A stretch of DNA of 64,000 nucleotides from Rhodocyclaceae bacterium (GTDB taxonomy: Bacteria > Pseudomonadota > Gammaproteobacteria > Burkholderiales > Rhodocyclaceae), in contig VMSX01000011.1 in the NCBI GenBank assembly GCA_013791905.1, positions 62,001-126,000 of the forward strand. The letters run 5' to 3'. The position numbers and the translations under genes were made by a program. Positions 931-34,988 of this stretch are shown here, piece after piece; position 1 is the first letter of the stretch, and each line of letters begins with the position of its first letter. The notes under the pieces were generated by a model. That model worked only from the letters and a program-made list of their open reading frames with translations, had not been told where the DNA came from and ran no database searches.

Positions 931-934
931 CCAT

Positions 935-9677: not shown

Positions 9678-9689
9678 GGATAAATAACC

Positions 9690-11674: not shown

Positions 11675-11677
11675 ATA

Positions 11678-17382: not shown

Positions 17383-18240
17383 TCAGAACAGCACCTCATG
17401 CCAGCGGTCACTGTCCTGCAAGGATTTTTTCACTTTTGCCCACGCGGCAACGGAACCGGCAATCCCGGCCAGCGCCTTTTCAACAAGCGGCAACATGTCG
17501 TTTACGCCTGCCACATAGACATGGGTATCCGGGCTTTGCACCATTTCCCACACCTCGGCAGCATTCTGCTCCAGCGCCTTGTCCAGTTCGGCTGGAACGT
17601 CAAACGCCGGACGCGGACTAATGGCCTGAAAAGCCTTGAAAGTAGGTTGATAGACATATTGCGCCAGATCCTTGTTTGCATCGTTCATGTAAAGCATTTC
17701 GAGGCCGCTCTTCGCGCCGTAGAAGAGACGCACCTTGCCTTCCCAACTGCCATACTTCTCATAGATCGTGCGAATCATCACCCGGAACGGCGCGATGCCC
17801 GTTCCCATGCCGATCATGATGATGCCCGCCTTGCGGCTCTCCGGCATGGTGAATGGATAACCGACGGGACCGGAAAACTCGACCGTTGCGCCGACCGGCA
17901 GATCACACAGATAGTTGGAAGCGATACCCGGATAACGCTCGCCATTGAAGTCGTCAATGTAGTTGTGGCGCTTCACGCAAATGGCAAACTCGGTGCCATC
18001 ATCGTGCTCGCTGCCCGGCTCGGCGATCAGGTACAGGCGCGGGTGATACTTGTTGCCATATTGCCCCGGCGCCATGACGCGGATGCACTGCCCCATCTTG
18101 CCGTCAAACGCTTTGCCATCGCGGTGCAGCACCAAGTGGCGCACTTCTTCCGGGGAATCCGGTGGAGTGATGCGCTGCGAGCGCACGAGGGTGGCGGTGT
18201 ACAACTTGCTGGCGGCAGCATCATCTGGCGTGGTTTGCAT
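17383..18240 (-). CDS. Ferredoxin-NADP reductase-like flavoprotein
   Basis: 285 residues. The FAD segment is HPRLYLIAEPG (position of the family RxYS motif), a NAD(P) loop reads GMGTGIAPFRVMI, and the end reads YVAGVNDMLP followed by a C-terminal Trp/His region. It would transfer electrons between NADPH and ferredoxin or another one-electron carrier. The start ATG 18238-18240 follows an AAAGGAATC ribosome-binding site. It is convergent with the rhodanese gene and divergent from the alcohol dehydrogenase gene. The physiological partner is unknown. Confidence 0.85.
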   Translation of the reverse strand: MQTTPDDAAASKLYTATLVRSQRITPPDSPEEVRHLVLHRDGKAFDGKMGQCIRVMAPGQYGNKYHPRLYLIAEPGSEHDDGTEFAICVKRHNYIDDFNGERYPGIASNYLCDLPVGATVEFSGPVGYPFTMPESRKAGIIMIGMGTGIAPFRVMIRTIYEKYGSWEGKVRLFYGAKSGLEMLYMNDANKDLAQYVYQPTFKAFQAISPRPAFDVPAELDKALEQNAAEVWEMVQSPDTHVYVAGVNDMLPLVEKALAGIAGSVAAWAKVKKSLQDSDRWHEVLF

Positions 18241-18310
18241 CGCGATTCCTTTCGGGATTTGGGTTGCAGCGATGATACCCGAGCTGCGCATTTTCACGCA
18301 TGAACCGCAC

Positions 18311-21162: not shown

Positions 21163-22635
21163 TCAACCCAGTCGCCTGATCCAGGCTTCCGCCGCCGGTT
21201 GCATCAGGTCGAGTAGCAACGCCGGGAAAAGCCCAAAGAAAATGATCAGGAGCGCAAAAGTCAGCGCTAACCAGTATTCCCGCGGCCGCAAATCTTCTGC
21301 CTCAATTACGGCTTGTCGGGATGCCGGACCAAAAAATGCACGACGATAGATGCTGAGGAAATAGGCCGCCCCGACCACCATACCAAAAAGGGCAGCAAGC
21401 CCTGCACCGGCGTGGCTTTTAAAGGTAGACATCAAAATAAGGAGTTCCGCAGGAAAACCCGAAGTGCCTGGCAAACCCATGCTCGCCAAGCCATAAAGCA
21501 AAAAGAAACTTGCCAACAGTGGCATGCTGCGTGCGGCGCCGCCGAGGTTGGCGATGTCGGTCGAACCGGTCCGGTGATGCAGATGGCTGGCAAGCAGAAA
21601 GAGTCCGCCGGCAACGATGGCAAAGTTGAGCAGTTGCAGCACTGCACCCTGTAACCCCTGCATGTTGAAGGAAGCCAGCCCGAGCAAGACAAGACCGAGA
21701 TGAGAGAGACTGGCATAGGCAAGCATGCGCCTGAGATTGGTCTGTGCCAGCGCGGCAAGCGCCCCGTAAATGATCGCCACCACGCCGAGCCCCGCCAGCA
21801 GCCAATGCAGATCCTGTGCCGCGGTTGGCGCCAACGGTATGGCAAAGCGAATCAGACCAAAGACACCCAGTTTCATGCCGGTCAGCAGCGCAGCCACCGC
21901 AGCCGGTCCTTCCATCGCGATCAAGGGCAACCAGGTATGCAGCGGAAACAGGGGCACCTTGACACCGAATCCAATCAATAGGAGCAGGAACACGAGGTAT
22001 TGGGTACTGGTCGGCAGCGGCGTCGCCAGCAGCGTCGGCAGATCGAACACCAACGGGCCTCCGGCAGCCGCCGCACCAAAGGCGAGGATAAGGATGCCAA
22101 ACAGCAACGGAATGCCGCCGGCCAGCATCACCAGGGTGTATTTCATCGCGGCATGGCGGCGGTTGGCACCGACACCCCAGAGGCTCACCAGGAAATACAG
22201 CGGCACCAGCGTAAATTCCCAGAAGAGGAAGAACAGCACCGTATCAAGGGCGCAAAACACACCCAGGGTCGCCGTCTCAAGCAGCATCAGCAAGCTGTAG
22301 TAAAGCCGCGGCAGCGTATGCACGCTGTTCCAGGAAGCAAGTATGACGCCGATGAACAGCAGCACCGCAGCCGGCAAAAAGAGAATCGAGATGCCGTCGA
22401 CGCCGACCAGGTAGTGGACATTGAGGCCAGGAATCCAGTCGTATTTCTCAACCAGCTGGAACCCTGATTGCTGGGGATCGAAAAGATACACAGCCGCTAA
22501 CGCAATAACCAGATCAATCAGCGCTGTGGTAAGCGCGATGCCGCGCGCCCACCCCGGCCGCGGCAGCAGCCAAGCCAGCAGCGCACCGCCAGGCAGCGTC
22601 AGGAACAGGAGGGAAAGTACAGGAAAATTATCCAT
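21163..22635 (-). CDS. NuoM-like proton-antiporter-type membrane protein (third of the operon's NuoM-like genes)
   Basis: 490 residues with about 14 membrane helices. The conserved antiporter-subunit segments are present: FFLFWEFTLVPLYFLV with the helix-5 glutamate, and PLFPLHTWLPLIAMEGPAAVAALLTGMKLGVFGLIR with a helix-7 lysine. It belongs to the NuoM/MrpD proton-channel superfamily but sits in a DAB operon, not a complex I operon. ATG 22633-22635 overlaps the upstream gene's end by 8 bp, implying coupled translation. It is the last gene before the terminator. It likely helps couple proton movement to bicarbonate accumulation. Confidence 0.8.
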   Translation of the reverse strand: MDNFPVLSLLFLTLPGGALLAWLLPRPGWARGIALTTALIDLVIALAAVYLFDPQQSGFQLVEKYDWIPGLNVHYLVGVDGISILFLPAAVLLFIGVILASWNSVHTLPRLYYSLLMLLETATLGVFCALDTVLFFLFWEFTLVPLYFLVSLWGVGANRRHAAMKYTLVMLAGGIPLLFGILILAFGAAAAGGPLVFDLPTLLATPLPTSTQYLVFLLLLIGFGVKVPLFPLHTWLPLIAMEGPAAVAALLTGMKLGVFGLIRFAIPLAPTAAQDLHWLLAGLGVVAIIYGALAALAQTNLRRMLAYASLSHLGLVLLGLASFNMQGLQGAVLQLLNFAIVAGGLFLLASHLHHRTGSTDIANLGGAARSMPLLASFFLLYGLASMGLPGTSGFPAELLILMSTFKSHAGAGLAALFGMVVGAAYFLSIYRRAFFGPASRQAVIEAEDLRPREYWLALTFALLIIFFGLFPALLLDLMQPAAEAWIRRLG

Positions 22636-24127
22636 CGCCAAATCGCGCAGCAAGGGCATGGAGCGCAGGCTCGATCAGGTTGAGCCAGGGCTCGAAGTAA
22701 AAGCCAGCCACCAACAATACCGAGACGACAATGCCCCCCACCAGGTATTCCATTGGCAAGGTACGTTCGATGGCTGAACTCTCCCCTTCTGGCCGCGGTG
22801 CCAGGAAGGCTTTCTGAAATGCCCAGAGCAGGAAGCCGGCAGCGATGACGTTACCAAGCGCCGCCGCGACTGTCGGCAATGCACCAAAGCGTTCCATGGC
22901 TGCCTCAAGCACGAAATGAACGGCATCGAATCCCGGTGTGCCGGGCATGCCGACAATGGAAAACCCCCCAACGAGAAAGCAGAACGCAATGAAGGGAATT
23001 CGCTCGAAAAGGCCACCAAGCTTGGCCAGGTCGGTCGTGCGCGTCCGCCGGTATACGAAACCGACCATGAACAGCATCACCGTCACAGCCAGACCGAAGT
23101 TTACTGTCAGCAACACCGCTCCGGTCAAGCCCAGTGGATGCAGGCTGAATAGCCCGATCACGATGAGCCCGGTGTGGCTGATTACGGCGAATGACAGCAG
23201 GCGGCGTAGGTTGGTTTGCAGGAAGGCCAGGATCGCTGCATAGAAAACGCCGACCATGGCGAAGCCGACAATGGCGTTCTGCCAGACCTGCACGGCCTCC
23301 GCAGTCAGTGGCAAAAGGAACCGCAACATGCCGTAGATGCCGATCTTGACACCCAGCAACAGAGAGGGAGCGATTGCGACCATGCCGCGATGGGCGACAT
23401 GTGGCAGCCAACCGTGCAGCGGGAACAGCGGAGTTCGTACTGCCAGACCGAAGAACAGCAGAAAGAAGGCGACTGACTGGAAACGCCTTTGCGCCGACGC
23501 CTTGCTGAGGTCAAACAAGTCGAAGCTCCAGTAGCCGGTAACGCTGGCATGATCCCAGGCAAGGATGAACACGCCCCCCACCAGGAGCAGCACCCCGACA
23601 CCCTGGAACTGCAGGAAGCGGGTCATGGCCAACAGGCGATTTTCCCTGGTTGAAGTCGACCAGTGGCCAATCAAATAACCGGCCAAGGCCAGTTCGACTA
23701 CCGAGAACAGCACGAACCACAATAGATTCATCGTGACCAGCATGGCCATCAATGCCGCCTCGGCAAGCAAGATCAGCGCCATCAACCGGCCGGGCTGAGC
23801 CAGGCCACGGACCAGACCGTAAAGAGTCATCAGCACGGCGATCAGCGCTGTCAGCAACACGAACAGGGCCGTGATGCCGTCGGCGGCGACATGGTAGCCG
23901 AGCCTGTCGATGCGCTCGGCCAACTGCATTGCCGGTTCTGCCGCGTCGATATGCTGATAGAGAATGAAACCAAGCCACAACTCTGCCAGTGCAACAACGC
24001 GCCCCAAAGCCACAGCAATGGTGCGTTCGCCCAGCGCAAGAATGATGATCGCTCCGGCGAGCGGCAGCAACTGCAGCAACGCAAGAATCGGCCAACTAGC
24101 CTGCTGTGTCCAGAGAATCTCGGTCAC
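22628..24127 (-). CDS. NuoM-like proton-antiporter-type membrane protein (second)
   Basis: 499 residues from a GTG at 24125-24127 that follows GGAGGCAAG; earlier in-frame starts would add a hydrophilic leader untypical of the family. It has PLFPLHGWLPHVAHRGMVAIAPSLLLGVKIGIYGMLR around helix 7 and a helix-5 SVVELALAGY segment in which the glutamate is kept but the usual FWE becomes VVE. This is the most divergent of the four antiporter-like subunits. It follows the NuoL-like gene after an 88-bp gap. It probably forms part of the membrane sector of the DAB-type complex. Confidence 0.78.
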   Translation of the reverse strand: MTEILWTQQASWPILALLQLLPLAGAIIILALGERTIAVALGRVVALAELWLGFILYQHIDAAEPAMQLAERIDRLGYHVAADGITALFVLLTALIAVLMTLYGLVRGLAQPGRLMALILLAEAALMAMLVTMNLLWFVLFSVVELALAGYLIGHWSTSTRENRLLAMTRFLQFQGVGVLLLVGGVFILAWDHASVTGYWSFDLFDLSKASAQRRFQSVAFFLLFFGLAVRTPLFPLHGWLPHVAHRGMVAIAPSLLLGVKIGIYGMLRFLLPLTAEAVQVWQNAIVGFAMVGVFYAAILAFLQTNLRRLLSFAVISHTGLIVIGLFSLHPLGLTGAVLLTVNFGLAVTVMLFMVGFVYRRTRTTDLAKLGGLFERIPFIAFCFLVGGFSIVGMPGTPGFDAVHFVLEAAMERFGALPTVAAALGNVIAAGFLLWAFQKAFLAPRPEGESSAIERTLPMEYLVGGIVVSVLLVAGFYFEPWLNLIEPALHALAARFGDG

Positions 24128-24215
24128 GACCTTGCCTCCAACTGATCGTTTGTGACCAGCAACATTTCCATGCACCTGAAGGCGCACAGAACAGGAAGAA
24201 AAAAGGTTTGGGTGG

Positions 24216-25754
24216 TCATAGGATGATGACGAAGATGGCAACCACCAGCAATATCAAATAGCGTGGCCGTTCCAGCAGTGCCTCCAGGACCAGCAAATAC
24301 TCTCCGGCGCGACGCATCGCACCCACCAAAGGCCCGGCACCCTGCCGCATGACGAGGCGCGATTCGAAACGGTGCAGACGCTCGGCAACCCAAACGAGTA
24401 AGGCACCGGCCAGTCCGTGACCGAGAATCACCTTATCCCGGTCGACCTCGTTGAATGCACCAGCGCGGTGTCGCGCCGGCATGCCAACGAGGTGGGCGAG
24501 CACGTTATCGTCAAAATCGCGCATGTCCCTGCCCACTGCGCGAGTAGGGCGAACCAGGGTACTCACCACCAACTGGTCAAGCCAGAAACGCTGCAGTGCA
24601 GCGGTGTACAGCCACTGCCGGCCGGCCAGCCAGGCGGGTACCGGCCTGGCTTTTTCCGTGACCAGATGCATGTAGGACGGCGCCAACAGAAACTGGTAGG
24701 CGCGCCAGATCGTGTGCAGTCCCATATGCCAGGCGGCGACCTGGAACCAGCCAAGGCCGCAGGCGAGGAACATCAGCCCGACCTGGGTCGTGGTGGCGAA
24801 AATCAGCGAGGATTTGACGTCGGTCTGGACGAGGCCCACCAGCCAACCATAAAGCGCAGTAAGCGCGCCAACTATAGCGAGAGCGACCATCACGCCCGGC
24901 ACATGCAACAACACCGGTTCGAGCCGGAGCACCAGATAGACGCCAGCATGAACCATCACCGCACCGTAGAAAATGGCCGAGGACGGTGTCGGCCCCTCAA
25001 GGGCGCGGGCGATCCACGTTGAAAAAGGGAACTGCGCTGACTTGATCACGGCAGCCAGCAGAAAACCAAACAAAACCAGCCGCGCCGTGACCTTGTCGAA
25101 GACACTGGCATTGTCTGCCCAGTTCCCCAGCTCCGCCCACTCGACCGAGCCCAGCCACCACGCGGCAAGAGCGATGCCCAGAATGAACCCGGCATCGCCA
25201 ATGCGGTTGGTAATGAAGGCCCACAACGCGTTGCCCGTCGCCACTGGCCGGTCATAAGCATAGCCAATCAACAGAAACGAACTGATACCCGCAAACTCCC
25301 AGCCAACGAAGGTCAGTACCGCGTTGCCCGACAACACGATCAACAGCATGCCAGCGAGAAACACGCACATGAAGATGTAAAAACGGTGAAAGCCGGGTTC
25401 GCGATGGAGATAGTGGCGCGAAAAGCGCAAGGTCACCAGGCCAATCAGCGCCACCAGCGTTGCGTAAGACAGGGAAAGGCCATCAAGGACAAAGGAGATC
25501 GGGATAGTAAAGTCGCCACTGGCGAACCAGGTGCCAATGACCATGTGGCCGGGCGCCCCCTCGATCAGTGCCAGCGTATCGAGGCCAAGGAGGCCAAGCA
25601 GCGCGAGCCAAACCGCAGCTTCGGCAAGCCGTGCCGTCGGCGGCTCACCAGCATCGCCCCGCGCCTGTCCGGAAAGGATGTAAGCCGTAATGCCGCCCGC
25701 CGCCAGCAGCGGCAACAGGGGAATCAGTATGACAAGGATGAACAGACAGTTCAT
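24216..25754 (-). CDS. dabB: NuoL-like subunit, probable DabB
   Basis: 512 residues, starting at an ATG that overlaps the dabA stop as ATGA. The NuoL pattern is clear: NAVLTFVGWEFAGISSFLLIGY (helix-5 glutamate), then SAQFPFSTWIARALEGPTPSSAIFYGAVMVHAGVYLVLR. DabB proteins of the two-gene DAB pump (Halothiobacillus DabAB; Tcr_0853-0854 in Hydrogenovibrio) are NuoL-like and conduct the cation that powers DabA, which fits direct coupling to dabA here. The long lateral helix of true NuoL is lacking. Confidence 0.85.
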   Translation of the reverse strand: MNCLFILVILIPLLPLLAAGGITAYILSGQARGDAGEPPTARLAEAAVWLALLGLLGLDTLALIEGAPGHMVIGTWFASGDFTIPISFVLDGLSLSYATLVALIGLVTLRFSRHYLHREPGFHRFYIFMCVFLAGMLLIVLSGNAVLTFVGWEFAGISSFLLIGYAYDRPVATGNALWAFITNRIGDAGFILGIALAAWWLGSVEWAELGNWADNASVFDKVTARLVLFGFLLAAVIKSAQFPFSTWIARALEGPTPSSAIFYGAVMVHAGVYLVLRLEPVLLHVPGVMVALAIVGALTALYGWLVGLVQTDVKSSLIFATTTQVGLMFLACGLGWFQVAAWHMGLHTIWRAYQFLLAPSYMHLVTEKARPVPAWLAGRQWLYTAALQRFWLDQLVVSTLVRPTRAVGRDMRDFDDNVLAHLVGMPARHRAGAFNEVDRDKVILGHGLAGALLVWVAERLHRFESRLVMRQGAGPLVGAMRRAGEYLLVLEALLERPRYLILLVVAIFVIIL

Positions 25755-28700
25755 GGCGTGACAGTCTCCAGCGGACGTTCCAGCAACACCGGCGGCAACG
25801 GCTCGCGATGGCCCGCGAACCAGTCGACTGACTGTTTCACTGTCTCCACCGCAAGCTCGCCTTGCCACGGCAGCCAGCCGCTGGCCGGGTCAAACTGGTG
25901 AATCGCCCCAGTTTGCGGGTCCTTCGCCGCAACGATCACCCAGCCGTTGCCGACCAGTTCCTGCAGCGGCGGCTGGCGCTGGTAAACAGCGGTGATGATG
26001 TCGAGTGTCTGCTCGATCACCACCAGCAGCCGCATCGCCTCGTGCACCTCGATCATCTGTTTCGGCAGCCCCGTCGCGAGATCAGAGGATGCGCCCTGCA
26101 TGACGCCGAAATAACCCGCGACATTGTGGGTGACCTTGCTGCCGCAGCCGAACTGTTCGTTGTTCACCGTCGAGAAAAAATATTCCAGGCTGATGCCGGC
26201 GCCGACCGCGCCGTTGATCAGCAGGTGGCGTTCGAGCACCTTGCCATCCGGGTCCTGCGTTGGATCATAGGAAATCAGAAAAGAGCGGCGGTCAAAGAAG
26301 GCGCCACGGCTCATGGCGCGGCGACCGAAAAAGGCACAGGCATTGGTTGCATGCCCGAGTTCGGGGCGGGCCTGCGACCAGTCGTTGCGGCGCTCCCAGG
26401 CATGGCGCAAGGCGGCGGCCTGGTCCAGATCCAGCGGCGCGGAATAGAGCCGGCGGCAGCGCTCCTGCGCGTGGGCCTGCACCGCCAGGACCAGATCACG
26501 GTCGAGCTGCGCAAAAGTCGGCGCTAGCGAGACGGCGATATCCTCGGTGTCGTACCAGGTGATCAGGTCATCGGTAGTGTTGTGCTCGGCACCGAGAAAC
26601 CAGGTCGTGTCAGGAATGTCGATGCCGCGCCCGCGCATCAGAGCGCGCACTTCAGAGCGATTCGCCATGGCGGCGAAAAGGCGCGCATTGGGACCGGAAT
26701 GGCGACCGGCACAGGCACCGCAATCGTAGGCCGACAGATGCGGATTATTCAGGCTGTTGGCACCGTGGCCCATGATGACCACCAGCGGTGCAAAGCTCTT
26801 CGTCAGGCCCAGGCTGGTAAGGAAGCCGGCAATCCGCTCGGCCTGTTCGCTGTCAGTGAAGCCATCACGGGGAAGTGCCGGCGTCGCCGGTCTGGCATCC
26901 GCGGCCGCATTGAGGTCGAGCTGCGTCGCAACCGGCAAGTCGAAGCTGCGGCGCAAATTGGCACTGATGCGCCCGTAGGCACCCGGAGCGAATGAATGCA
27001 GCAAAGTACCGGCAAAGGCCAGCGGCGACGCCAGAATGGAAAGCAGCGTGCCACCGACCAGGCGTGTGCGCGTCACCTGATGCAGGCGGTCCTGCCAGCG
27101 CAACCGGTACCGGTTGCGCCGGCGGTGCTCTTCAGCCACAGCTGCTGCATCGGCACGTGGCACTTCATGCACATTGTGCGATGGCACGATCACTTCAGGC
27201 ACCACCGGACACAGCGGCGTCGGCTCACTATCGTCCAAACCATAGTAATTCTGGAACACGGCAAAGTGTGCCGCGCCGCCAAGCGTTTCGAGCTGGGGAT
27301 TGACCTCTTCGAGGTGACGGCGCATGCCCTCCTCGCGGTCGTCCATGCAAAAAACCAGTTGCGCGGTCGGGCCACCGCCAGCCTGGTGTCCCGGCCAACG
27401 GCCATGGTTCGCGGCCAGGCCAGCGAAAATCTGTTCGCGGTAATGTCGTTCGTAGGCGTTAAGCCAGACGAAGCCACGCTGGTACTGGTCGAGCCGGTCA
27501 AGGCAAGCCAGCATCGCTTCGGCTCCGCTACGACCAAACGCGCGCAATTCATTGCCGGACAATCCCAGGTGCTGAACCAGCCGGAACAGCGGCCAGACTG
27601 AACGCGGCAAGCTGTGGCTCGCCTGCTGCTCGACCGTCGGCGTCGCGCGCCAAGCCTCGACATGCCTGGCCAGCCACACCCACAAACCGGGCACCTGTGG
27701 CAGCGCGGCATCACCCGTAGCCGGCAGATGCGGGGCAATCAGGTCGAGTAAATACTCCGGCAATTCGCCGCTGTGCACGGCATGACGCACCCATAACTCG
27801 GCAGGATGGCGATGAAAATATTCACCGAGATCGGTCAGATTCAGCTCGACATTCCAGTGGCGACGCGCGCAATCCGCAGCAACCAGGCTCTCGAGCACCA
27901 GCCGCACGGCAAGGTAGTCCATCATCGCCACCGGCACATCTTTGGTACCGGCATACCCTGGATGATTGTGGCGCCAGAGGAACATGCCCGACCAGCCCGG
28001 CAGTTCCAGCGCCAAGCACTCAAGGTAGGCTGGCCAGCGGTCTTCGGGCAAACCCAGCCGGGTCAATACGGCAATGACACAGTCGCCCGCATCGTCCGGC
28101 AGTCGGGAGATTTCTGATCGCGCTTCGGGCAAAGACTCCAGTTCCCAGATGATGTCGCGCTGGGCACTTGCCCGCCAGGCAGCATAGAAACCCTGTGGCC
28201 GTGCCGGATTGTTCCATGGTGCGAGGCCTTGATCGAGATGCGCCCCGAGATGACGCAGCAGAAGCGAGCGCACCCGCTCCAATGCGTCTTCGGCGGTGAG
28301 CGCCTTGAGAAGTGCACCCACCGTCCAGCCAGCGCCGACTTTGTTGGCCCCCCACGCTCGCAACCCCGGCTCGCTGCCCCCCACGGGGGTGCTGGCGTCC
28401 GCTTGGGACGGCCCGGCGCCGACTTTTGCGGCGAGCTCCTGCCACAGTGCAGCGGCGGGAGCGGCAAACCGCTGTCTGGCCTCTGCAATGGCGGCATGAC
28501 CCTCTTCTTCACGGACCGAAAGTTCAAGCAGTTCCTCGGGATGATCGAAGGCATGGTCAAGCTCGAAAACGTCGAGGCAGGCAGCCCAGAGATCGGCAAC
28601 GATGAGCACTTCGCCAGCGCCGCTGGCCAGCAGTCGTTTCCGTGCCGCAGCAGGCACTTCGTCGGCAAGCCGGGTCAGCGCCTGACGCTCCTCGATCTGC

Positions 28701-29101
28701 CACTTGAGCAGGGGAAGTGGAATCGAGCCAAGCGGATAAATCAGACCCGCGCGCAGCACGTCGCGACTGGAAACCGCCGGCGCAGTCAGCAGCACTTCAT
28801 CGATGTCGACACCCCAGTCCGGCGCAAGCTGATTCAATGCGGCATCAAGATCGCCAGCATCGATACGCCCAACACCATACAAACGCCGGCACTCGTCCTC
28901 GGGCAGCCACGCCGCCGCACCGGTCAGCTGGCTGGCGGCGACCAGCGCCTTGGGAAACGGCAGGTGTTGAAAGCCATGCAGCGTATTGTGGTGTACAAAG
29001 TCGCGGAGCGCTGCCTGGCTCGGCAGCACATGTTCGAGGTGATGAACACAGTGTGCCAGGCGCTGGCGGGTATCTTGCGGCATCTCCAGCGGCGGTTCCA
29101 C
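25751..29101 (-). CDS. dabA: DabA, inorganic-carbon accumulation subunit (DUF2309)
   Basis: 1116 residues, in the long class of DabA. The carbonic anhydrase-like zinc site is intact: CMDDR with C585, D587 and R589, and H779 plus C794 in the H-x14-C arrangement (GHGANS...YDCGACAG). DabA is thought to hydrate CO2 vectorially to bicarbonate, driven by its antiporter-like partner, on the cytoplasmic face. The start is a GTG one base after the upstream NuoM-like stop. Residues about 226-258 (KVGAGPSQ...GANKVGAG) are encoded by a REP-like repeat and look like an insertion between two copies of the dispersed repeat. A third dispersed-repeat copy encodes SLAPTFAQ. Confidence 0.9.
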   Translation of the reverse strand: MEPPLEMPQDTRQRLAHCVHHLEHVLPSQAALRDFVHHNTLHGFQHLPFPKALVAASQLTGAAAWLPEDECRRLYGVGRIDAGDLDAALNQLAPDWGVDIDEVLLTAPAVSSRDVLRAGLIYPLGSIPLPLLKWQIEERQALTRLADEVPAAARKRLLASGAGEVLIVADLWAACLDVFELDHAFDHPEELLELSVREEEGHAAIAEARQRFAAPAAALWQELAAKVGAGPSQADASTPVGGSEPGLRAWGANKVGAGWTVGALLKALTAEDALERVRSLLLRHLGAHLDQGLAPWNNPARPQGFYAAWRASAQRDIIWELESLPEARSEISRLPDDAGDCVIAVLTRLGLPEDRWPAYLECLALELPGWSGMFLWRHNHPGYAGTKDVPVAMMDYLAVRLVLESLVAADCARRHWNVELNLTDLGEYFHRHPAELWVRHAVHSGELPEYLLDLIAPHLPATGDAALPQVPGLWVWLARHVEAWRATPTVEQQASHSLPRSVWPLFRLVQHLGLSGNELRAFGRSGAEAMLACLDRLDQYQRGFVWLNAYERHYREQIFAGLAANHGRWPGHQAGGGPTAQLVFCMDDREEGMRRHLEEVNPQLETLGGAAHFAVFQNYYGLDDSEPTPLCPVVPEVIVPSHNVHEVPRADAAAVAEEHRRRNRYRLRWQDRLHQVTRTRLVGGTLLSILASPLAFAGTLLHSFAPGAYGRISANLRRSFDLPVATQLDLNAAADARPATPALPRDGFTDSEQAERIAGFLTSLGLTKSFAPLVVIMGHGANSLNNPHLSAYDCGACAGRHSGPNARLFAAMANRSEVRALMRGRGIDIPDTTWFLGAEHNTTDDLITWYDTEDIAVSLAPTFAQLDRDLVLAVQAHAQERCRRLYSAPLDLDQAAALRHAWERRNDWSQARPELGHATNACAFFGRRAMSRGAFFDRRSFLISYDPTQDPDGKVLERHLLINGAVGAGISLEYFFSTVNNEQFGCGSKVTHNVAGYFGVMQGASSDLATGLPKQMIEVHEAMRLLVVIEQTLDIITAVYQRQPPLQELVGNGWVIVAAKDPQTGAIHQFDPASGWLPWQGELAVETVKQSVDWFAGHREPLPPVLLERPLETVTP
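26512..26535 (-). repeat. Dispersed short repeat, copy 4 (in dabA)
   Basis: One mismatch to the core (CTAGC for CCAGC). Read in the dabA frame as VSLAPTFA. Confidence 0.65.
28321..28428 (-). repeat. REP-like element (copy B) inside dabA, bordered by two dispersed repeats (copies 5 and 6)
   Basis: On the minus strand the block starts with AAAAGTCGGCGCCGGGCCG, continues through GGGGGGCAGCGAGCC and GAGCGTGGGGGGCCA, and ends with ACAAAGTCGGCGCTGGC. The borders GGGCCG...GAGCGTGGGGGGCCA match the intergenic copies at 830-930 and 60817-60942. Its two outer arms are copies of the dispersed repeat and are translated as KVGAG at both ends. It keeps the reading frame, adding about 32 residues to DabA. 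Confidence 0.65.
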
Positions 29102-29102
29102 A

Positions 29103-30566
29103 TCAGGCTCCGAAGTACTGCGCCAGCCGCGCTACCGAGGCTCCGACGAGATTAAGCGCCGGGGCGGGGAAGAGGCCAATGGCGACAATGCCGAATGCAA
29201 GCGCACTGGCCGCCGTCATTTCGGTGCGGCTCAGATCGGGTACGCTTTTCATGGTCGCACTGACCGGTCCGGTGAACAGCCGTCCGACGGTACGGAAAGC
29301 GTAGGCGGCACTGATCAGGAGTGATAGCGACAGCACTACCATCCATAAACCCCAGCGCGCAAAACCGCCAAGCAGCGCGTGCAACTCGGCGATGAATCCT
29401 GCCGTGCCCGGCAAACCAACGGCTGCAGTGAGCGCCAGCACCATGAAAAAGGCGAAGCGCGGCATGGTCCGCACCAGGGATGCGTAATCGCCGATGTCAC
29501 GCGTATGCGTACGCTCGTAGAGCAGTCCAACCAGAAAGAACAACGCGCCCGCGACCAAGCCGTGGGCGATCATCTGCATCGTCGCGCCCGCAAACCCGGC
29601 GGGATTGAGCGCGGCAATGCCCAGCAACACCACCCCCATATGGCTGATCGACGAATAGGCGATCATTTCCTTGAGGTCGCGACTTCTCCAGGCCAGCACA
29701 CCACCGTAGATCATGCTGACGAAGGCGAGCGTGACGAGCAGCGACTGCAACAGCAAGGCCGCACCAGGCAAGGTCTCGACCGCGCGCAGGAGGCCATACG
29801 AGCCCATCTTGAGCAGGATGCCCGAGAGCAGGATCGAGACGGCACTCGGCGCCTCGACGTGGGCAAGCGGCAACCAGCCATGCAGAGGGAAGATCGGCAT
29901 CTTGACGCCAAAACCGATCAACAAGCCGAGGAAGATCCAGACCTGCGTCGCCACCGGCAACCCCGGCGACGCTTCGGCAATCGCGCTCATACTGAAACTG
30001 TGCGTCGGCACCGCATCGTAAAGCAACAGGATCGCGAGCAGCATGAACACTGAACCGCCCATCGTATAGAGCACAAAGTTGAGTGCTGCCTTCTGCCGAC
30101 GCTGACGGTTTTGACCGCCCAGACGGTCGATAAGGAAAAACAGCGGGATCAGCGTCAGTTCCCAGAAAACATAGAACAGCGACCAGTCGCGCGCCATGAA
30201 AACACCCAGCATGGCGGTCTCAAGCAGCAAGAGCAGCGAGAAGTAAAACTTGGCGCCCTGCTTGACGGTACCCGAGGCAACCACGGCCACCGGCATCAAT
30301 AATGTCGCCAGCAGGATCAACGGCAACGAAAAGCCATCGACACCGAGAGAGAAACTTGAGCCGAGACGATCGTGCCAGGCATGGACTTCGTAAAACTGAA
30401 TGTCGGCAACGGCCGGATCAAAATAAACCAGCAGCGACCAGGCAAAGGCCGCTACCACCATGGTCGCCATCAGCGTTATCCGACGGATCAAGGCGGGATC
30501 TAGCACCGGTAGCAAGGCAACCAGAATGGCTCCCACCAGCGGTAATAGCAACAGAGTGCTCAGCAT
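29103..30566 (-). CDS. NuoM-like proton-antiporter-type membrane protein (first)
   Basis: 487 residues, the most NuoM-like of the set: SLFYVFWELTLIPLFFLID with the helix-5 glutamate, PIFPLHGWLPLAHVEAPSAVSILLSGILLKMGSYGLLR with the helix-7 lysine, and a typical YSSISHMGVVLLG. In complex I such a subunit moves one proton. Here it starts 49 bp after the SulP gene and ends one base before dabA. No other Nuo genes are near, so it is a DAB accessory or core subunit and not part of complex I. Confidence 0.82.
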   Translation of the reverse strand: MLSTLLLLPLVGAILVALLPVLDPALIRRITLMATMVVAAFAWSLLVYFDPAVADIQFYEVHAWHDRLGSSFSLGVDGFSLPLILLATLLMPVAVVASGTVKQGAKFYFSLLLLLETAMLGVFMARDWSLFYVFWELTLIPLFFLIDRLGGQNRQRRQKAALNFVLYTMGGSVFMLLAILLLYDAVPTHSFSMSAIAEASPGLPVATQVWIFLGLLIGFGVKMPIFPLHGWLPLAHVEAPSAVSILLSGILLKMGSYGLLRAVETLPGAALLLQSLLVTLAFVSMIYGGVLAWRSRDLKEMIAYSSISHMGVVLLGIAALNPAGFAGATMQMIAHGLVAGALFFLVGLLYERTHTRDIGDYASLVRTMPRFAFFMVLALTAAVGLPGTAGFIAELHALLGGFARWGLWMVVLSLSLLISAAYAFRTVGRLFTGPVSATMKSVPDLSRTEMTAASALAFGIVAIGLFPAPALNLVGASVARLAQYFGA

Positions 30567-30615
30567 CCGGGAATATTAACATCTTCGAATATTGCTGATC
30601 ACCGGCAATTTCTAT

Positions 30616-32787
30616 TCAGTCATGACCGGCGTCGGCGACCAGCGCCGGGCGCACGGCGGGCGCCACCGGTGTCAGGGAAAGCGGTCGCAACGCATCCTGT
30701 GCATCGACATTTTTTGTCACTGCTGAGTAGATTTTCTCAAGCGCCTGATCGGATGTGGCGAAAAAACATTCTTCACCGATCGTTTTGCTCAAACCAGTCT
30801 TGCGAATGACATCCAGGACCTGCTTCTTGAACCCCGAAAACATCATCACCACGCCGATATCGTGAAGCCGCTCGACCAGATGATGAATGACTTCCTCGCC
30901 AGATGCGTCAACCTCGTTGATACCATCACAGACCACAAGCAAATAGGGCGCTTCGGGGTTGGCCGCCACAGCCTCTAGAATGGCATCCTCAAAATATGAA
31001 ACATTGGCGAAATACAACCGGCCATCGAAGCGAACGGCAGTAACGATGTCGGAGGCGGGCAGGTTGTTCACCTTGACATCGCGCAAGGTTCCGTCGCGAT
31101 AACGACCGAGGATGGCAACCCGCGGCGTCATGGTGCGATAGAGATAAAGCACCAAAGCCAATCCAGCACCGACCATGATGCCCTTGTCCAGGTGGGGCGC
31201 AAAAGCCAGGGTAGCGACGAAAGTGACAATGGCGGCGATCCCGTCATGCTTGTTCACAAGCCAGGCATGCTTGATTGCGCTAAAGTTGATCAGACCGACG
31301 ACGGCCATGATGATCACGGCCGCCAGCGCCGCCTGCGGTAGAAAATAAAGCAGCGGCGTCAGGAACAGTAAGGTCAGCAGCACGATAAGGCCGGTGAACA
31401 CCGCCGACATACCAGTCTTGGCACCCGCATTGAAGTTCACCGCCGAGCGCGAAAAAGAGCCTGAAACCGGGAAAGCCTGAGTCGATGCGCCGACAATATT
31501 GGCCAGCCCTTGCCCAATCAGTTCCTGATTGGGGTCAACCTTGTCCTTGGTCTTGGCGGCGATGGCCTTGGCGATGGAAATTGCCTCCATGAAGCCCACC
31601 AGGGAAATCACAAAGGCGGCACCAAGCAGGCTTTTGATCATATCCCAGTTCAGTGTCGGCATCTTGATCGAGGGGAGCCCCTCGGGAATCTTGCCAACCA
31701 CATCGCCACCCCCGACGAGTTTGAAATTCCCGTCCTTGACGCCGCGTAGGTGATAAGTCGCACCATCGTCTTGCAAGCCGGCCGGCAACCGGTTCGCTGC
31801 ATGAATGCCGACGAACTTCCCCTGATCGTCCACCGCGCGAACCACTTGAACGCTCCGCAGGGACTTGTTCAACTCGCCAGCCTCCATTTCAAATATTTCG
31901 ACGGAAATTCGTGTCGCTTCAAGAATGGCGTCGCGCGTCACCGCTTCAGCACTGTGATCGCCTCTGATCTTGTGCGCCTGCTTGGCTTCGGCTGCGGTTA
32001 CCGCCACGACCTTGTTGGCATTGTCGATCCGCCGATTGGCTTCCGCCTGACGGGCGACCTGGGTCTTGAGTTCCTGGTCGGCAATCTGATCGATCGTGCC
32101 GTAAGTATTTCTCTCGAAGTGCAGCGCCCATGAAGCGACACTGGTCACTGCCACTGCAATCAGCACTCCTGGCAATTTTGGCGCCCATCTGCGCGCAGAC
32201 CAGATAATGATGATTGCCACAACCCCCATCGCCAAGGTCGGCAAATGCGTATCCCCTACCTGCTTCATGACCTCCCATATGTCATTAATGAACGACTCGG
32301 AGCGCCCCATCGCAACGCCGAGCAATTTGTTCACCTGGGACAAACCGATAATCATCGCTGCTGCGTTGGTGAAGCCCACAATGACCGGGTGGGAGAGGAA
32401 GTTAACGATCACGCCGAGTTTGAAGATACCGAGGGTTATTTGGACAACCCCGACCAGCAGCGCCATCAGGATCGCCAAGGCGATGAACTGTTCGGAGCCC
32501 GGTACGGCCAATGGGGCTAGCGTTGAAGCGGTCAATAACGACACGACGGCCACCGGTCCGGTGCCGAGTTGGCTTGAGGAGCCCCACAGCGATGCCACCA
32601 TCACCGGCAGAAACGATGCGTAGAGGCCATAGTAGGCTGGCAGTCCAGCCAACTGCGCATAGGCCATCGATTGCGGCACCAGCACCAAGGCAACGGTCAG
32701 GCCGGCAAAGAAATCGGCCTTGAGCGTGTCGCGGCGCAACGGGAACCAGCGGAGAAAAGGGAAGATTTTTTTGATTGAAACAGTCAT
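30616..32787 (-). CDS. SulP anion (probable bicarbonate) transporter with STAS domain
   Basis: 723 residues. The SulP core has VLVPQSMAYAQLAGLPAYYGLYAS and NPVIVGF-like helices, and a STAS domain ends it (DGINEVDASGEEVIHHLVERL). Unlike most SulP proteins it carries an extra hydrophilic block of about 120 residues (roughly 228-350), rich in Ala, Lys and Glu and coiled-coil-like, between membrane segments. The paralogue at 36600 shares this block. SulP includes the bicarbonate transporter BicA, and placement as the second gene of the DAB operon favours bicarbonate. Sulfate remains possible. It is preceded by a small Usp-like gene, 16 bp away. Confidence 0.85.
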   Translation of the reverse strand: MTVSIKKIFPFLRWFPLRRDTLKADFFAGLTVALVLVPQSMAYAQLAGLPAYYGLYASFLPVMVASLWGSSSQLGTGPVAVVSLLTASTLAPLAVPGSEQFIALAILMALLVGVVQITLGIFKLGVIVNFLSHPVIVGFTNAAAMIIGLSQVNKLLGVAMGRSESFINDIWEVMKQVGDTHLPTLAMGVVAIIIIWSARRWAPKLPGVLIAVAVTSVASWALHFERNTYGTIDQIADQELKTQVARQAEANRRIDNANKVVAVTAAEAKQAHKIRGDHSAEAVTRDAILEATRISVEIFEMEAGELNKSLRSVQVVRAVDDQGKFVGIHAANRLPAGLQDDGATYHLRGVKDGNFKLVGGGDVVGKIPEGLPSIKMPTLNWDMIKSLLGAAFVISLVGFMEAISIAKAIAAKTKDKVDPNQELIGQGLANIVGASTQAFPVSGSFSRSAVNFNAGAKTGMSAVFTGLIVLLTLLFLTPLLYFLPQAALAAVIIMAVVGLINFSAIKHAWLVNKHDGIAAIVTFVATLAFAPHLDKGIMVGAGLALVLYLYRTMTPRVAILGRYRDGTLRDVKVNNLPASDIVTAVRFDGRLYFANVSYFEDAILEAVAANPEAPYLLVVCDGINEVDASGEEVIHHLVERLHDIGVVMMFSGFKKQVLDVIRKTGLSKTIGEECFFATSDQALEKIYSAVTKNVDAQDALRPLSLTPVAPAVRPALVADAGHD

Positions 32788-32803
32788 GGCTACATCCTAA
32801 ATA

Positions 32804-33205
32804 TCAGAATCGTGGATCAACTTTGGTTTTGGCCGGCACAACCGTCACAAGCGGGCAAGCCAACTGACGCCATGGATTGTCGCCCTTGAGCGGGGCATCA
32901 GCACCCCAGCCGGCGAGGGAATCGATCATCACGGTGACAATACATTCGTGTGTATTGGCATACCTGACGATGTCCTGCCGCTGTAACTCGGGCATGCGCG
33001 TCAAGGTACAGATTACGCCCGCGTCGCGCATTTCACGCGCAAAGTCAGTTATGGCGACCGGCAGCGAATCGCTCCCGGCAAGCACGAGGATGTCGAGTCC
33101 TGCAGCCATGCGCTGGCACAGGCCGCGCGCCGAAATCAGCAATCGCTGATCGAGTTGACTCGCGCGCACAGCAAGGAGCACCTTGCGTCCGGAACGGTTC
33201 CCCAT
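32804..33205 (-). CDS. Small Usp-like protein heading the DAB operon
   Basis: 133 residues from ATG 33203-33205 (a GTG three bases earlier is also possible). The alternating pattern KVLLAVRAS...LDILVLAGSD...CIVTVMIDSLAGWG...CPLVTVVPA has the fold rhythm of universal stress proteins, without a clear G-x2-G ATP motif. It is first in the leftward operon, 86-90 bp from the predicted sigma-54 start. A regulatory partner of the SulP transporter, like the Usp domains fused to transporters elsewhere in this window, is a reasonable guess. Confidence 0.65.
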   Translation of the reverse strand: MGNRSGRKVLLAVRASQLDQRLLISARGLCQRMAAGLDILVLAGSDSLPVAITDFAREMRDAGVICTLTRMPELQRQDIVRYANTHECIVTVMIDSLAGWGADAPLKGDNPWRQLACPLVTVVPAKTKVDPRF

Positions 33206-33304
33206 CACAGCTCAAAGCTTCCGCCATAAACGGCAGATGGCAAAGGTAAGCAACAGCGGGTGATGCACAGCGGTCCTTCCGGATATAAAAGACATCTATA
33301 GCAT

Positions 33305-33320
33305 AGCAAACCCCGTGCCA
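33305..33320 (-). promoter_or_regulatory. Sigma-54 (-24/-12) promoter of the DAB/SulP operon
   Basis: Read on the minus strand: TGGCACG-GGGT-TTGCT, a full match to the RpoN consensus with correct spacing. The predicted start site is near 33294, about 90 bases before the Usp-like start. The next gene on the other strand belongs to a two-component pair whose regulator has a sigma-54 interaction domain. Confidence 0.88.
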
Positions 33321-33399: not shown

Positions 33400-33501
33400 G
33401 TTGCTTGATGCAACTAGAAATATCGCAAACAGCGAAGACCTCTACAGCATGAGGACTAATGACACATTGCATTAGGCATGTCTATTGTTGCATAATGCAA
33501 T
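33400..33501. promoter_or_regulatory. Three TTGC-N5-GCA palindromes, probable enhancer sites
   Basis: GTTGC-TTGAT-GCAAC (33400-33414, perfect), ATTGC-ATTAG-GCATG (33466-33480) and GTTGC-ATAAT-GCAAT (33487-33501). The first lies 79 bp upstream of the leftward sigma-54 promoter. The last lies 20 bp before the kinase start, so the activator may also control its own gene. No other clear element is visible in the 316-bp spacer between 33205 and 33522 apart from the sigma-54 promoter. Confidence 0.65.
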
Positions 33502-33521
33502 TTCTCTTGATATTCGTCCGC

Positions 33522-34988
33522 ATGAACTCACTCCGCCAGAAACTCTTTTTTGGTTATGCAACGATCGTGGCGCTGGTGGTCGCGCTTTCGCTACTCTCGC
33601 TTATTGAGCTGAAACTGCTGGAGCATAAAATTGTCGCTGGCGAGCGCATCGCCCATTTTTTCGACATCTCGCTGGAGATTCGACGCTTCGAGAAGAACTT
33701 CTTTCTCTACCATCAGGACGCCGATCTCACTGAAAATCGCACCTATGTCCGCCGCGCGAGCGCCATGCTGCGCGAGCACACAGAGGTCTTCGCTGCACTT
33801 GGCAATGCTGCCCGGGTGTCACAACTTCGCGGCGACCTCGATCGCTATACCAGTCTTATGGATCAATACGCTGCAACCCCAACTGCAGGTGACAATGGTA
33901 CGGCTGGGGGAATCCGCAAGATCGGCAAGGAAATCGTCACCATCGCCGAAGACTGGGCCAAGGCCGAGCGCAAGGCGTTGCAGGCGCAACTTGACCGGCA
34001 CCGCCTGATTCTGCTTGGCTCCGTCTCTTTCATCGGCTTGGCGGTGATCGCAATAGGTGGCTTGCTGGCACGGCGAGTGCTCCGCCCGCTCAAGGAAATG
34101 GAGCGGAAGATGAAGGAGGTGGCCAGCGGGCATTTGGCCAAACTTGAGATGTCGAGCGACGAACGCGAGATTGAATCGCTGACCCGCGCCTTCAACCACG
34201 TGCTTCACGAATTGGAAACACACCAGCGACAACTCTTGCACTCCGAGAAGCTCGCTGCGCTCGGCACCTTGCTCTCAGGTGTGGCCCACGAACTCAACAA
34301 CCCACTGTCGAATATCGCCACCTCAACCCAGATTCTCGCTGAGGAAGCCGGCGGTGAAGACAAGACAGGCGAGGCAGCCGAGTTCCGTCGCGAACTCATC
34401 ACCCAAATTGACGAAGAAACATGGCGGGCCCGACGCATCGTGCGTTCGCTGCTTGACTATGCGCGCGACCGCGATTTCCACCGCGAGACCTTGCCGTTAG
34501 CCTCTCTGGTCGAGGATACCCTGCGCCTGATCCGCAGACAGATTCCGGGATCAATTGCCGTCGCCGTGGAGATTCCTGAAGGGCTGGAAGCATCCGGCGA
34601 CCGTCAGCGTCTGCAACAGGTGCTGCTCAACCTGGTGCGTAACGCTGCCGACGCCATGCAGGACGGCGGCGAAGTACGCATCACAGCGCGGCTAACGCAT
34701 GAGGTGTGCGTGGCGCAACCGCCTGACCGGCTGGTCTTCGGTCATTGCAGCAGTGAGGCGGCGGCGGTAGAAATCGAAGTGCGCGACAACGGTTGCGGCA
34801 TTGCATCCGCAACATTACCGCGCATTTTCGATCCATTTTTCACCACCAAGGACGTCGGCAAGGGTATGGGACTGGGGCTGTTCATCGTATTCGAGATCAT
34901 TGAGGAGCATGGCGGATGCATTGCAGTCGAAAGCAAGCCCGGCTGCGGAACATCATTCACTATTCGCCTGCCTCTGGAGAAGTCATGA
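33522..34988 (+). CDS. Sensor histidine kinase partner of the sigma-54 activator
   Basis: 488 residues from ATG 33522. Two membrane helices (about 12-30 and 163-182) enclose a helical periplasmic sensor domain. A HAMP linker follows, then HisKA with GVAHELNNPLSN (H256), and an ATPase domain with NLVRNAADAM, DNGCGI and GMGLGLF. The short all-helical sensor resembles four-helix-bundle ligand domains. It overlaps the regulator gene by 4 bp (ATGA). Its location opposite the DAB operon suggests it senses carbon or anion status, but the signal is not visible in the sequence. Confidence 0.88.
   Translation: MNSLRQKLFFGYATIVALVVALSLLSLIELKLLEHKIVAGERIAHFFDISLEIRRFEKNFFLYHQDADLTENRTYVRRASAMLREHTEVFAALGNAARVSQLRGDLDRYTSLMDQYAATPTAGDNGTAGGIRKIGKEIVTIAEDWAKAERKALQAQLDRHRLILLGSVSFIGLAVIAIGGLLARRVLRPLKEMERKMKEVASGHLAKLEMSSDEREIESLTRAFNHVLHELETHQRQLLHSEKLAALGTLLSGVAHELNNPLSNIATSTQILAEEAGGEDKTGEAAEFRRELITQIDEETWRARRIVRSLLDYARDRDFHRETLPLASLVEDTLRLIRRQIPGSIAVAVEIPEGLEASGDRQRLQQVLLNLVRNAADAMQDGGEVRITARLTHEVCVAQPPDRLVFGHCSSEAAAVEIEVRDNGCGIASATLPRIFDPFFTTKDVGKGMGLGLFIVFEIIEEHGGCIAVESKPGCGTSFTIRLPLEKS

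What the first reader, a model, noticed from the sequence alone, without database searches (positions are those of the whole stretch)
21163..33205. Enlarged DAB locus with four different antiporter-like subunits
The described DAB pump needs only DabA and one NuoL-like DabB. Here dabA lies between a NuoM-like gene and a NuoL-like gene and is followed by two more divergent NuoM-like genes, all tightly spaced, headed by a Usp-like gene and a SulP transporter. The set resembles the proton-pumping arm of complex I attached to a carbonic anhydrase-like subunit. This could let several protons drive each bicarbonate, giving a steeper gradient.
Basis: partly seen in the sequence, partly recalled or inferred. 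Interest (0 to 1): 0.8.

Follow-up and report, generated by a model that had tools for sequence, protein, structure and literature searches.

The report
Four-antiporter CO2-hydrating membrane complex
Many bacteria carry a fixed five-gene set that joins a carbonic-anhydrase-like protein to four proton-channel proteins like those of respiratory complex I, and its conserved residues suggest that it couples protons to CO2 differently from the known two-protein pump.

Summary
Usp-like, SulP, M1 (NuoM-like), DabA, DabB (NuoL-like), M2 and M3 (NuoM-like) lie nearly gapless. M1-DabA-DabB-M2-M3 is a conserved unit: exact in 52 of 55 relative loci with enough flanks, the other 3 being variants; 36 of 398 phylum genomes hold M2. 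M1-M3 are not complex I or hydrogenase remnants: each is its own clade in the NuoM clan. Two genomes with a natural DabB::M2 fusion keep M1 and M3 elsewhere; a third keeps M1-DabB-M2-M3 with DabA on another contig. The zinc site is intact, but the finger Glu essential in DAB2 is missing (0 of 96; 69 of 72 in the comparison set), and DabB keeps a complex-I-type switch Glu (78 of 79 against 1 of 69). Against: L179 has this signature without neighbouring M genes. Of 14 genomes with the set or part of it, 13 have RuBisCO but one a carboxysome shell. Best reading: a redox-free complex-I-like arm driving CO2 hydration through several proton channels; stoichiometry and direction are untested. The arrangement, and the idea that subunit number sets ion number, were printed in 2017 (PMC5700660).

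The parts
25751..29101 (-). DabA, 1116 aa, beta-carbonic-anhydrase-like cytoplasmic subunit (PF10070); C585, D587, R589, H779, C794 at the DAB2 zinc-site places; finger hairpin with I689 at the place of DabA2 E444; E590 and H917 at DabA2 S356 and L658
   Evidence: PF10070 749 bits; PDB sequence match 9rd0_A E 3.6e-68; residues; AlphaFold model pLDDT 80.8 with helices 650-679 and 681-704
24216..25754 (-). DabB, NuoL-like subunit, 512 aa (open frame runs up to 25868); keeps the E153/R184/D187/K238 switch residues
   Evidence: PF00361 and PF00662; alignment A1; residue counts; model pLDDT 82.9, last 90 residues about 34-63, best fold match NuoL
29103..30566 (-). M1, NuoM-like antiporter subunit with E136, K222, K253, H309, H335, E394
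   Evidence: TIGR01972 477 bits over cut-off 264; own clade; residues
22628..24130 (-). M2, divergent NuoM-like subunit (start unsure, frame open to 24241); TM7 Arg, no TM5 or TM12 Glu, invariant D439/H442/E446 (numbering of the 537-aa frame)
   Evidence: TIGR01972 280 bits; own clade, sister of M3; residues
21163..22659 (-). M3, NuoM-like subunit with E148, K234, K263, H320, E405
   Evidence: TIGR01972 463 bits; own clade; residues
30616..32787 (-). SulP-family anion transporter with STAS domain, same operon (candidate bicarbonate transporter)
   Evidence: PF00916 and PF01740; an open frame whose best hit is this SulP lies somewhere in 26 of 80 loci, not always next to M1 or on its strand
32804..33208 (-). 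small protein, Usp-like by eye only
   Evidence: no Pfam or NCBIfam hit at E 0.001; homologue in 7 of 80 loci
33306..33320 (-). exact sigma-54 type promoter site TGGCAC-N5-TTGC (consensus recalled) facing the operon
   Evidence: 0 mismatches; sites with at most 1 mismatch at 4 of 67 relatives, about what the control (125 of 4000) predicts, though all 4 are loci with HK and RR hits
33459..34988 (+). divergent sensor histidine kinase
   Evidence: HAMP, HisKA, HATPase_c
34916..36343 (+). NtrC-type sigma-54-dependent response regulator
   Evidence: Response_reg, Sigma54_activat, HTH_8
19495..20595 (+). CsoSCA-like carbonic anhydrase gene beside the operon (CxDxR, H and C zinc motif by eye)
   Evidence: CsoSCA_cat 26.5 bits over cut-off 21.5, but below the NCBIfam CsoSCA cut-off (42 of 241 bits); homologue at 12 of 80 loci
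36600..38747 (+). second SulP-family transporter beyond the two-component genes (association only)
   Evidence: TIGR00815 392 bits

Best explanation
The five genes encode one membrane complex, a vectorial CO2 hydratase whose proton module is a redox-free, complex-I-like row of four antiporter-type subunits. DabA hydrates CO2 at a beta-CA-like zinc site and inserts its hairpin finger into DabB, as in DAB2. In DAB2 the finger's own Glu and a DabB held open make a single proton path. Here the finger Glu is gone and DabB keeps the Glu/Arg/Asp/Lys switch by which complex I subunits are thought to sense a neighbour, so gating is most likely passed sideways from M1/M3, which keep the charged path residues of NuoM, with M2 a modified member beside DabB. 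Proton flow down the protonmotive force through more than one channel would then drive and rectify hydration. Shown: gene set, conservation, co-retention, residues, phylogeny. Inferred: assembly, lateral coupling, direction, number of protons.
For: Conserved order. DabB::M2 fusion in 2 genomes of one genus that keep M1 and M3 elsewhere; G074 keeps M1-DabB-M2-M3 together with DabA on another contig. Finger Glu in 0 of 96 cassette DabA rows (91 distinct; 6 have Asp) against 69 of 72 comparison rows, whose 3 exceptions are L111, L174 and L179, none of them a DabB-before-DabA locus. Zn ligands and the Asp-Arg dyad 96/96 and 72/72. DabB switch Glu/Arg/Asp/Lys 78, 79, 79, 79 of 79 (75 distinct) against 1, 60, 57, 30 of 69, the one Glu being L179. 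TM5 Glu, TM7 Lys, TM8 Lys and TM12 Glu: M1 82/82 at each; M3 67/67 at three and 66/67 (one gap) at TM12. M1, M2, M3 and DabB four single clades. Mutant data in DAB2 (PMC13144422, section read): E444A or E444Q abolishes activity, I151E halves growth yield.
Against: No biochemistry and no structure of the assembly. L179 (G248) has the same signature (no finger Glu, TM5 Glu, Glu356, His658) with DabA-DabB and no M1-M3 seen on 20 kb; G330 has M1-DabA without DabB, M2, M3 following; L308 has no DabA on its contig; whether the rest lies elsewhere in these genomes was not searched. The residue contrasts rest on about one evolutionary split, so they are not repeated tests. M2 lacks the usual pump residues and M3 has Arg at TM10 and Phe for the TM11 His, so four working channels is doubtful. 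Six cassette-type DabAs keep an Asp at the finger site although their genomes also have M1 (two of them away from DabA). 12 of 13 RuBisCO-bearing genomes with the set lack carboxysome shell genes, so pumping bicarbonate is not obviously useful there.
Confidence: 0.57

Rival explanations
1. The complex works the other way in many hosts: it uses bicarbonate (imported by the SulP partner) and runs dehydration, or otherwise pumps protons outward, supplying CO2 to carboxysome-less RuBisCO or making protonmotive force.
For: Of RuBisCO-bearing genomes, 1 of 13 with the set but 40 of 44 comparison genomes have carboxysome shell genes (Fisher p 3e-8, or 1e-7 without G330; not corrected for kinship). 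The active site differs: Ser356 to Glu and Leu658 to His in 96/96, Leu658 being the place of the transition-state Gln of beta-CAs (PMC13144422). PMC5700660 proposed outward pumping.
Against: DAB2 takes CO2 and is thought to be blocked in reverse (PMC13144422). Free CO2 would leak from a cell without carboxysomes. The window's own genome does have carboxysome shell genes.
Confidence: 0.2
2. DabA and DabB are a two-subunit pump as known, and M1-M3 form a separate proton or cation antiporter, or an accessory, that merely shares the operon.
For: NuoM-like proteins occur in other antiporters; M1 and M3 keep the charged path residues of NuoM; L179 has the same DabA and DabB signature with no M1-M3 seen nearby.
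Against: DabB::M2 fusion; DabA relocated while M1-DabB-M2-M3 stay together; the conserved five-gene order; no MrpB/C/E/F/G genes named by Pfam among the operon and other window proteins scanned.
Confidence: 0.14
3. The coupling ion is Na+ rather than H+, as argued for MpsAB.
For: PF00361 is shared with Mrp; MpsAB is argued to use Na+ (PMC13144422, introduction read).
Against: M1-M3 fall with NuoM, not with MrpA or MrpD; DAB2 needs no Na+ (PMC13144422).
Confidence: 0.06
4. M1-M3 are remnants of complex I or a hydrogenase that landed beside dabA.
For: TIGR01972 (NuoM) hits over the cut-off.
Against: Cassette-only single clades, order conserved across several families and at least two classes, a separate NuoL, NuoM and NuoN on C6 of the same genome.
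Confidence: 0.02

Closest known systems
DAB2 / DAC of Halothiobacillus neapolitanus and relatives (DabA2-DabB2, PDB 9rd0)
   Same: PF10070 DabA with the same zinc ligands and Asp-Arg dyad; NuoL-like DabB with altered C-terminal half; finger hairpin predicted
   Different: DabA before DabB; three added NuoM-like subunits; finger Glu absent; DabB TM5 Glu kept; Ser356 is Glu and Leu658 is His; mostly in genomes without carboxysome shell genes
YbcC (COG3002) 'clade C' neighbourhoods, COGNAT paper PMC5700660 (2017)
   Same: Same gene kinds (ybcC upstream of nuoL, extra NuoM and SulP genes) and the idea that subunit number sets ion number
   Different: In the passages read: function unknown then, no proton-path residues, no link to carbonic anhydrase or RuBisCO, outward pumping proposed; its supplementary figures were not read
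Cyanobacterial NDH-1MS (CupA on NdhF3-NdhD3; PMC6981117, passages read)
   Same: Works like it: a zinc CO2 hydratase on a terminal NuoL-type subunit with retained interface ion pairs, next to NuoM-type subunits
   Different: No redox subunits in the operon; hydratase is DabA, not CupA; energy would come from protonmotive force, not ferredoxin
Membrane arm of respiratory complex I (NuoL/M/N)
   Same: NuoL- and NuoM-type subunits; TM5 Glu, TM7 Lys, TM8 Lys and TM12 Glu in M1 and M3
   Different: No NuoN, NuoJ, NuoK or NuoH seen in the operon; altered NuoL C-terminal half; no electron input

Membership tests
DAB/DAC (DabAB) in the broad sense | PF10070 subunit with Cys-Asp-Arg, His, Cys zinc site | tested here: met
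   749 bits; residues 96/96
DAB/DAC (DabAB) in the broad sense | adjacent NuoL-like PF00361 subunit with altered C-terminal half | tested here: met
DAB2-type mechanism | essential Glu444 in the finger | tested here: not met
   0 of 96 Glu, 6 Asp; comparison set 69 of 72 Glu
DAB2-type mechanism | loss of the NuoL Glu144 equivalent in DabB | tested here: not met
   Glu kept in 78 of 79 cassette DabBs, present in 1 of 69 comparison DabBs (L179)
DAB2-type mechanism | two genes, DabB before DabA (the order seen here in the comparison loci) | tested here: not met
DAB/DAC (DabAB) in the broad sense | rescues CA-deficient E. coli, PMF-dependent | not testable with these tools
   needs the bench
NDH-1MS | CupA hydratase plus complex I redox core | tested here: not met
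   Pfam of operon and neighbours shows DabA and no NDH redox subunits; CupA was not searched for by a model of its own
Respiratory complex I remnant | extra subunits group within NuoM sequences of complex I | tested here: not met
   three separate clades, SH-aLRT 100 each
Mrp antiporter | MrpA/MrpD-type large subunits with small MrpB/C/E/F/G | tested here: not met
   Mrp-type large subunits lie elsewhere in the genome on C26 (label from recall)

The most novel reading that the evidence does not exclude
A distinct architecture of energy-coupled carbonic anhydrase: a complex I membrane arm without electron input, in which DabB's ion-pair switch is thrown sideways by NuoM-type neighbours instead of by a finger Glu, with at least two protons per CO2, serving as the CO2-handling machine of carboxysome-less RuBisCO bacteria together with SulP and a soluble CsoSCA-like enzyme.
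Probability: 0.38. Interest if true: 0.85.

Novelty: new variant of a known kind. Interest (0 to 1): 0.7.

Why it matters
How charge and proton signals pass sideways between the antiporter-like subunits of complex I is a long-standing open question, always tangled with electron transfer. This set looks like the same subunits coupled to CO2 hydration with no redox chemistry, so the coupling could be studied in isolation, and the number of coupled protons could be varied by deleting subunits. It also points to an unstudied CO2-handling system, mostly in RuBisCO-bearing bacteria without carboxysome shell genes; record titles of carriers include Thiodiazotropha symbionts, Accumulibacter and Magnetococcales.

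Tried and rejected
Complex I or hydrogenase remnant: rejected by the tree. Mrp origin: rejected by the tree. Chance clustering: rejected by synteny. 'M1 and M3 were lost in the fusion genomes': my first reading, rejected when searches found both elsewhere. Finger Asp as a marker of missing M1/M3: rejected, because all six genomes with Asp have M1. Fold search with the DabA model gave nothing at E 0.001 or better (best E 0.74); no 9rd0 row was among the 50 listed, so this is no evidence about the fold. Fold search with DabB only repeats the NuoL likeness. Sigma-54 site as a general feature: not supported (4 of 67, one of them inside the called start, about 2 expected from the control). Rfam and tRNA scans of the window were empty. 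No inter-protein coevolution analysis was tried, for too few complete cassettes. Row handling: distinct sequences are 91 of 96 DabA, 78 of 82 M1, 75 of 79 DabB, 69 of 73 M2, 63 of 67 M3, since a few contigs were fetched twice. Rows outside length limits and L077 were left out of the alignments. The 72-row DabA comparison set includes L111, L174 and L179; the 69-row DabB comparison set includes L179 but not L111, L154 or L174. The 63 comparison genomes include 3 never fetched (G094, G189, G278) and 2 where no DabB was seen on the stretch (G191, G314); weak RuBisCO-like hits (G202, G266, G314) count as RuBisCO.
Full report
OBSERVATION. The operon runs on the minus strand from 33208 to 21163: Usp-like, SulP, M1, DabA, DabB, M2, M3. 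I use M1, M2 and M3 for the three NuoM-like genes. DabA is 1116 aa and matches PF10070 with 749 bits. M1, M2 and M3 pass the NuoM model TIGR01972 over its cut-off (477, 280 and 463 bits against 264). DabB matches NuoL models best but only over residues 45-405 of the open frame. DabB probably starts at 25754, giving 512 aa and a 4-nt overlap with DabA, as in relative L014.

CONSERVATION. A pattern scan of 84,980 species genomes with DabA gave 271 relatives, of which the best 80 loci were kept. Of the 55 with enough flanking DNA on both sides, 52 have exactly M1-DabA-DabB-M2-M3 and 3 are variants of it. In 369 class genomes 83 have PF10070. I sorted these 83 as 14 with the set or part of it, 2 with a DabB::M2 fusion, 4 odd (G025, G070, G074, G248) and 63 in the comparison group, nearly all DabB-before-DabA two-gene sets (3 of the 63 were not fetched, 2 showed no DabB on the stretch taken). 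Of the 14, 11 show all five genes, 2 are cut by contig ends (G051, G319), and in G330 M1-DabA is followed by other genes. In 398 phylum genomes 36 hold an M2: 35 at 627-748 bits and one broken copy at 371, after which the best is 331 bits, at an M3. Of 14 of those fetched, 11 have the full order, 2 are cut by contig ends and 1 (L308) reads M1-M3-DabB-M2 without DabA on its contig. Many of the 36 lie in other classes of the phylum than the window's, so the set spans at least two classes.

CO-RETENTION WHEN BROKEN UP. In genomes G068 and G199 (one genus) DabB and M2 are one 1045-aa protein beside DabA. M1 and M3 are not beside it but are present elsewhere: M1 738 and 728 bits, M3 688 and 691 bits; in G199 M1 lies about 9 kb from DabA on the same contig. 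In G074 M1-DabB-M2-M3 are contiguous while the genome's only DabA lies on another contig. Keeping all five when linkage is lost argues for joint function, and a fusion argues for contact between DabB and M2.

PHYLOGENY. In a tree of 104 antiporter-like proteins, M1, M2, M3 and cassette DabB are each one side of a branch (SH-aLRT 100 each), and the two-gene DabBs another (99). M1, M2 and M3 lie in the NuoM clan (100), apart from NuoN, Mrp and Hyf; M2 and M3 are sisters (97) (quick search). In the DabA tree of 57 rows one branch of support 100 holds all 23 cassette rows, the 2 fusions and the solo DabA of G074, together with the odd loci L174 and L179; the 28 two-gene rows lie apart (87). L166 branches outside the main cassette group.

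RESIDUES. The DAB2 cryo-EM paper (PMC13144422; introduction and two result sections read) names the zinc ligands C351, H524, C539, the dyad D353/R355, an essential finger Glu444, and DabB residues matching NuoL's switch, with Glu144 replaced by Ile151. Here the zinc ligands and dyad are 96/96 in cassettes and 72/72 in the comparison set. Glu444 is Glu in 0 of 96 cassette rows (Ala 43, Leu 13, Thr 10, Asp 6, others) and in 69 of 72 comparison rows; the exceptions are L111 (Asp), L174 (Pro) and L179 (Leu). No neighbouring column takes over the acid. Ser356 is Glu and Leu658 is His in 96/96, and also in L174 and L179 but in no other comparison row. DabB keeps Glu/Arg/Asp/Lys at the NuoL 144/175/178/229 places in 78, 79, 79, 79 of 79, against 1, 60, 57, 30 of 69; the one Glu is again L179. 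NuoL and MrpA of this genome carry the Glu, so the simplest reading is that the cassette retains it and the two-gene type lost it. M1 and M3 keep TM5 Glu, TM7 Lys, TM8 Lys and TM12 Glu; M3 has Arg at TM10 and Phe for the TM11 His. M2 has Arg at TM7 (73/73), Lys at TM8 (73/73), no Glu at TM5 or TM12, and an invariant D439/H442/E446 (73, 73, 72 of 73). In complex I the TM12 Glu of NuoM (E407) is proposed to open the K229/D178 pair of NuoL (PMC9271201, passages read), which is the coupling proposed here for DabB and an M-type neighbour.

RESULTS AGAINST. L179 (G248) carries the whole signature (no finger Glu, TM5 Glu, Glu356, His658) with DabA before DabB, yet no M1-M3 was found on its 20 kb; it is a very long branch and the rest of that genome was not searched. 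L174 (G070) has DabA, DabB and one weak antiporter-like frame (66 bits). So the signature goes with the DabA-before-DabB type, and with the extra subunits in nearly all but not demonstrably all cases.

ASP AT THE FINGER. Six cassette-type rows have Asp there: L059, L089, L123, L166 and the two fusions. On a FastTree tree of 101 DabA rows the change between acid and none needs 3 steps, and a group of 86 cassette rows has no acid at all. This fits an acidic finger being lost after the extra subunits came, but the tree is quick and the root is chosen by me.

STRUCTURE MODELS. DabA (pLDDT 80.8) has a long helix pair 650-679 and 681-704 that carries I689, the Glu444 place. Foldseek found no PDB match at E 0.001 or better. 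DabB (pLDDT 82.9, last 90 residues poor) matches NuoL best, E 6.6e-20. No multi-chain model could be made.

GENOME CONTEXT. The window's genome has one DabA match, two RuBisCO and two BMC shell matches, one RuBisCO gene and both BMC genes lying within about 6 kb on C26. RuBisCO is present in 13 of the 14 genomes with the set or part of it, BMC shell genes in 1 of 14. In the comparison group it is 44 of 63 and 41 of 63. Among RuBisCO-bearing genomes BMC is found in 1 of 13 against 40 of 44 (Fisher p 3e-8; 1e-7 without G330; not corrected for kinship, and weak RuBisCO-like hits count). The two fusion genomes have neither. So the two-gene type goes with carboxysomes and the five-gene type mostly does not.

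NEIGHBOURS. A CsoSCA-like gene (19495-20595; 26.5 bits against a Pfam cut-off of 21.5, but far below the NCBIfam CsoSCA cut-off) carries the CxDxR, H and C motif by eye and occurs at 12 of 80 loci. The operon faces an exact sigma-54 type site at 33320-33306 and a divergent histidine kinase with an NtrC-type regulator. Sites with at most one mismatch occur upstream of 4 of 67 cassettes, all at loci with both regulator hits; random stretches have them in 125 of 4000, so overall this is no more than about chance.

MECHANISM. The best reading is a redox-free complex-I-like arm: DabA at DabB, DabB gated by NuoM-type neighbours, protons flowing inward through M1, M3 and perhaps others to drive CO2 hydration. 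It works like NDH-1MS (PMC6981117, passages read), where CupA sits on NdhF3, interface ion pairs are kept, and re-protonation is proposed to come from hydration, but with no electron input. Direction and stoichiometry are not shown. The carboxysome-less hosts and the changed active site leave open that it runs toward CO2.

NOVELTY. PMC5700660 (2017; passages read) already described ybcC upstream of nuoL with extra NuoM and SulP genes and proposed that more membrane subunits mean more ions; its supplementary figures were not read. A 2024 review of inorganic-carbon tools (PMC10880623, passages read) does not mention NuoM-like partners in what I saw. My ten searches of the held library listed no residue-level, structural or genome-association treatment of this set, but the library lacks most subscription journals and the 2019 DAB paper (id recalled) is not held. 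I file it as a new variant of the DabA/DAC kind: a broad member, but not DAB2-type in mechanism, since the finger Glu test fails.

Noticed in passing
L111 (G025:C1), DabA 8250-11102 -, antiporters 874-5866 -: A third arrangement: DabA beside small Mrp-like open frames and NuoN-, NuoL- and NuoM-like genes, with Asp at the finger site; that genome has neither RuBisCO nor BMC matches. Mrp labels are by eye.
   Followed up: partly
L179 (G248:C8), DabA 8539-11169 -, DabB 6741-8549 -: A DabA-DabB pair with the cassette residue signature but no M1-M3 seen on 20 kb; a possible minimal or ancestral form.
   Followed up: partly
L159 (G330:C52), M1 6862-8406 +, DabA 8406-11690 +: M1-DabA followed by unrelated genes; DabB, M2 and M3 not found on the stretch.
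   Followed up: no
L077 (Thiothrix sp.), from 8454 onward: Tandem duplication inside the cassette: M1-DabA-DabB-DabA-DabB-M2-M3.
   Followed up: no
L308 (G508:C139), 1567-7530: Order M1-M3-DabB-M2 with no DabA on the contig; whether DabA is elsewhere was not searched.
   Followed up: no
L295 8126-8797 and L297 7389-8072: In the two fusion genomes an open frame with a beta-carbonic-anhydrase-like GCSDSR motif lies beside or near the relocated M3 (label by eye).
   Followed up: no
window 2549-57494: Anion-transporter-rich region: three SulP genes, ChrA, a YeeE-type sulphur transporter, a Na+/sulphate symporter and two TauE genes.
   Followed up: no
G000:C25:270028-274361 (L186): A further set of three antiporter-like genes in the genome that splits over the tree and belongs to none of the named groups.
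   Followed up: no
G620, same genus as the window's genome: Has no M2-type match (best E 2.3e-74, the level of ordinary NuoM), so the set varies within the genus.
   Followed up: no
window 17984-17998 (-): A second exact sigma-54 type site, inside the coding frame 17383-18375.
   Followed up: no
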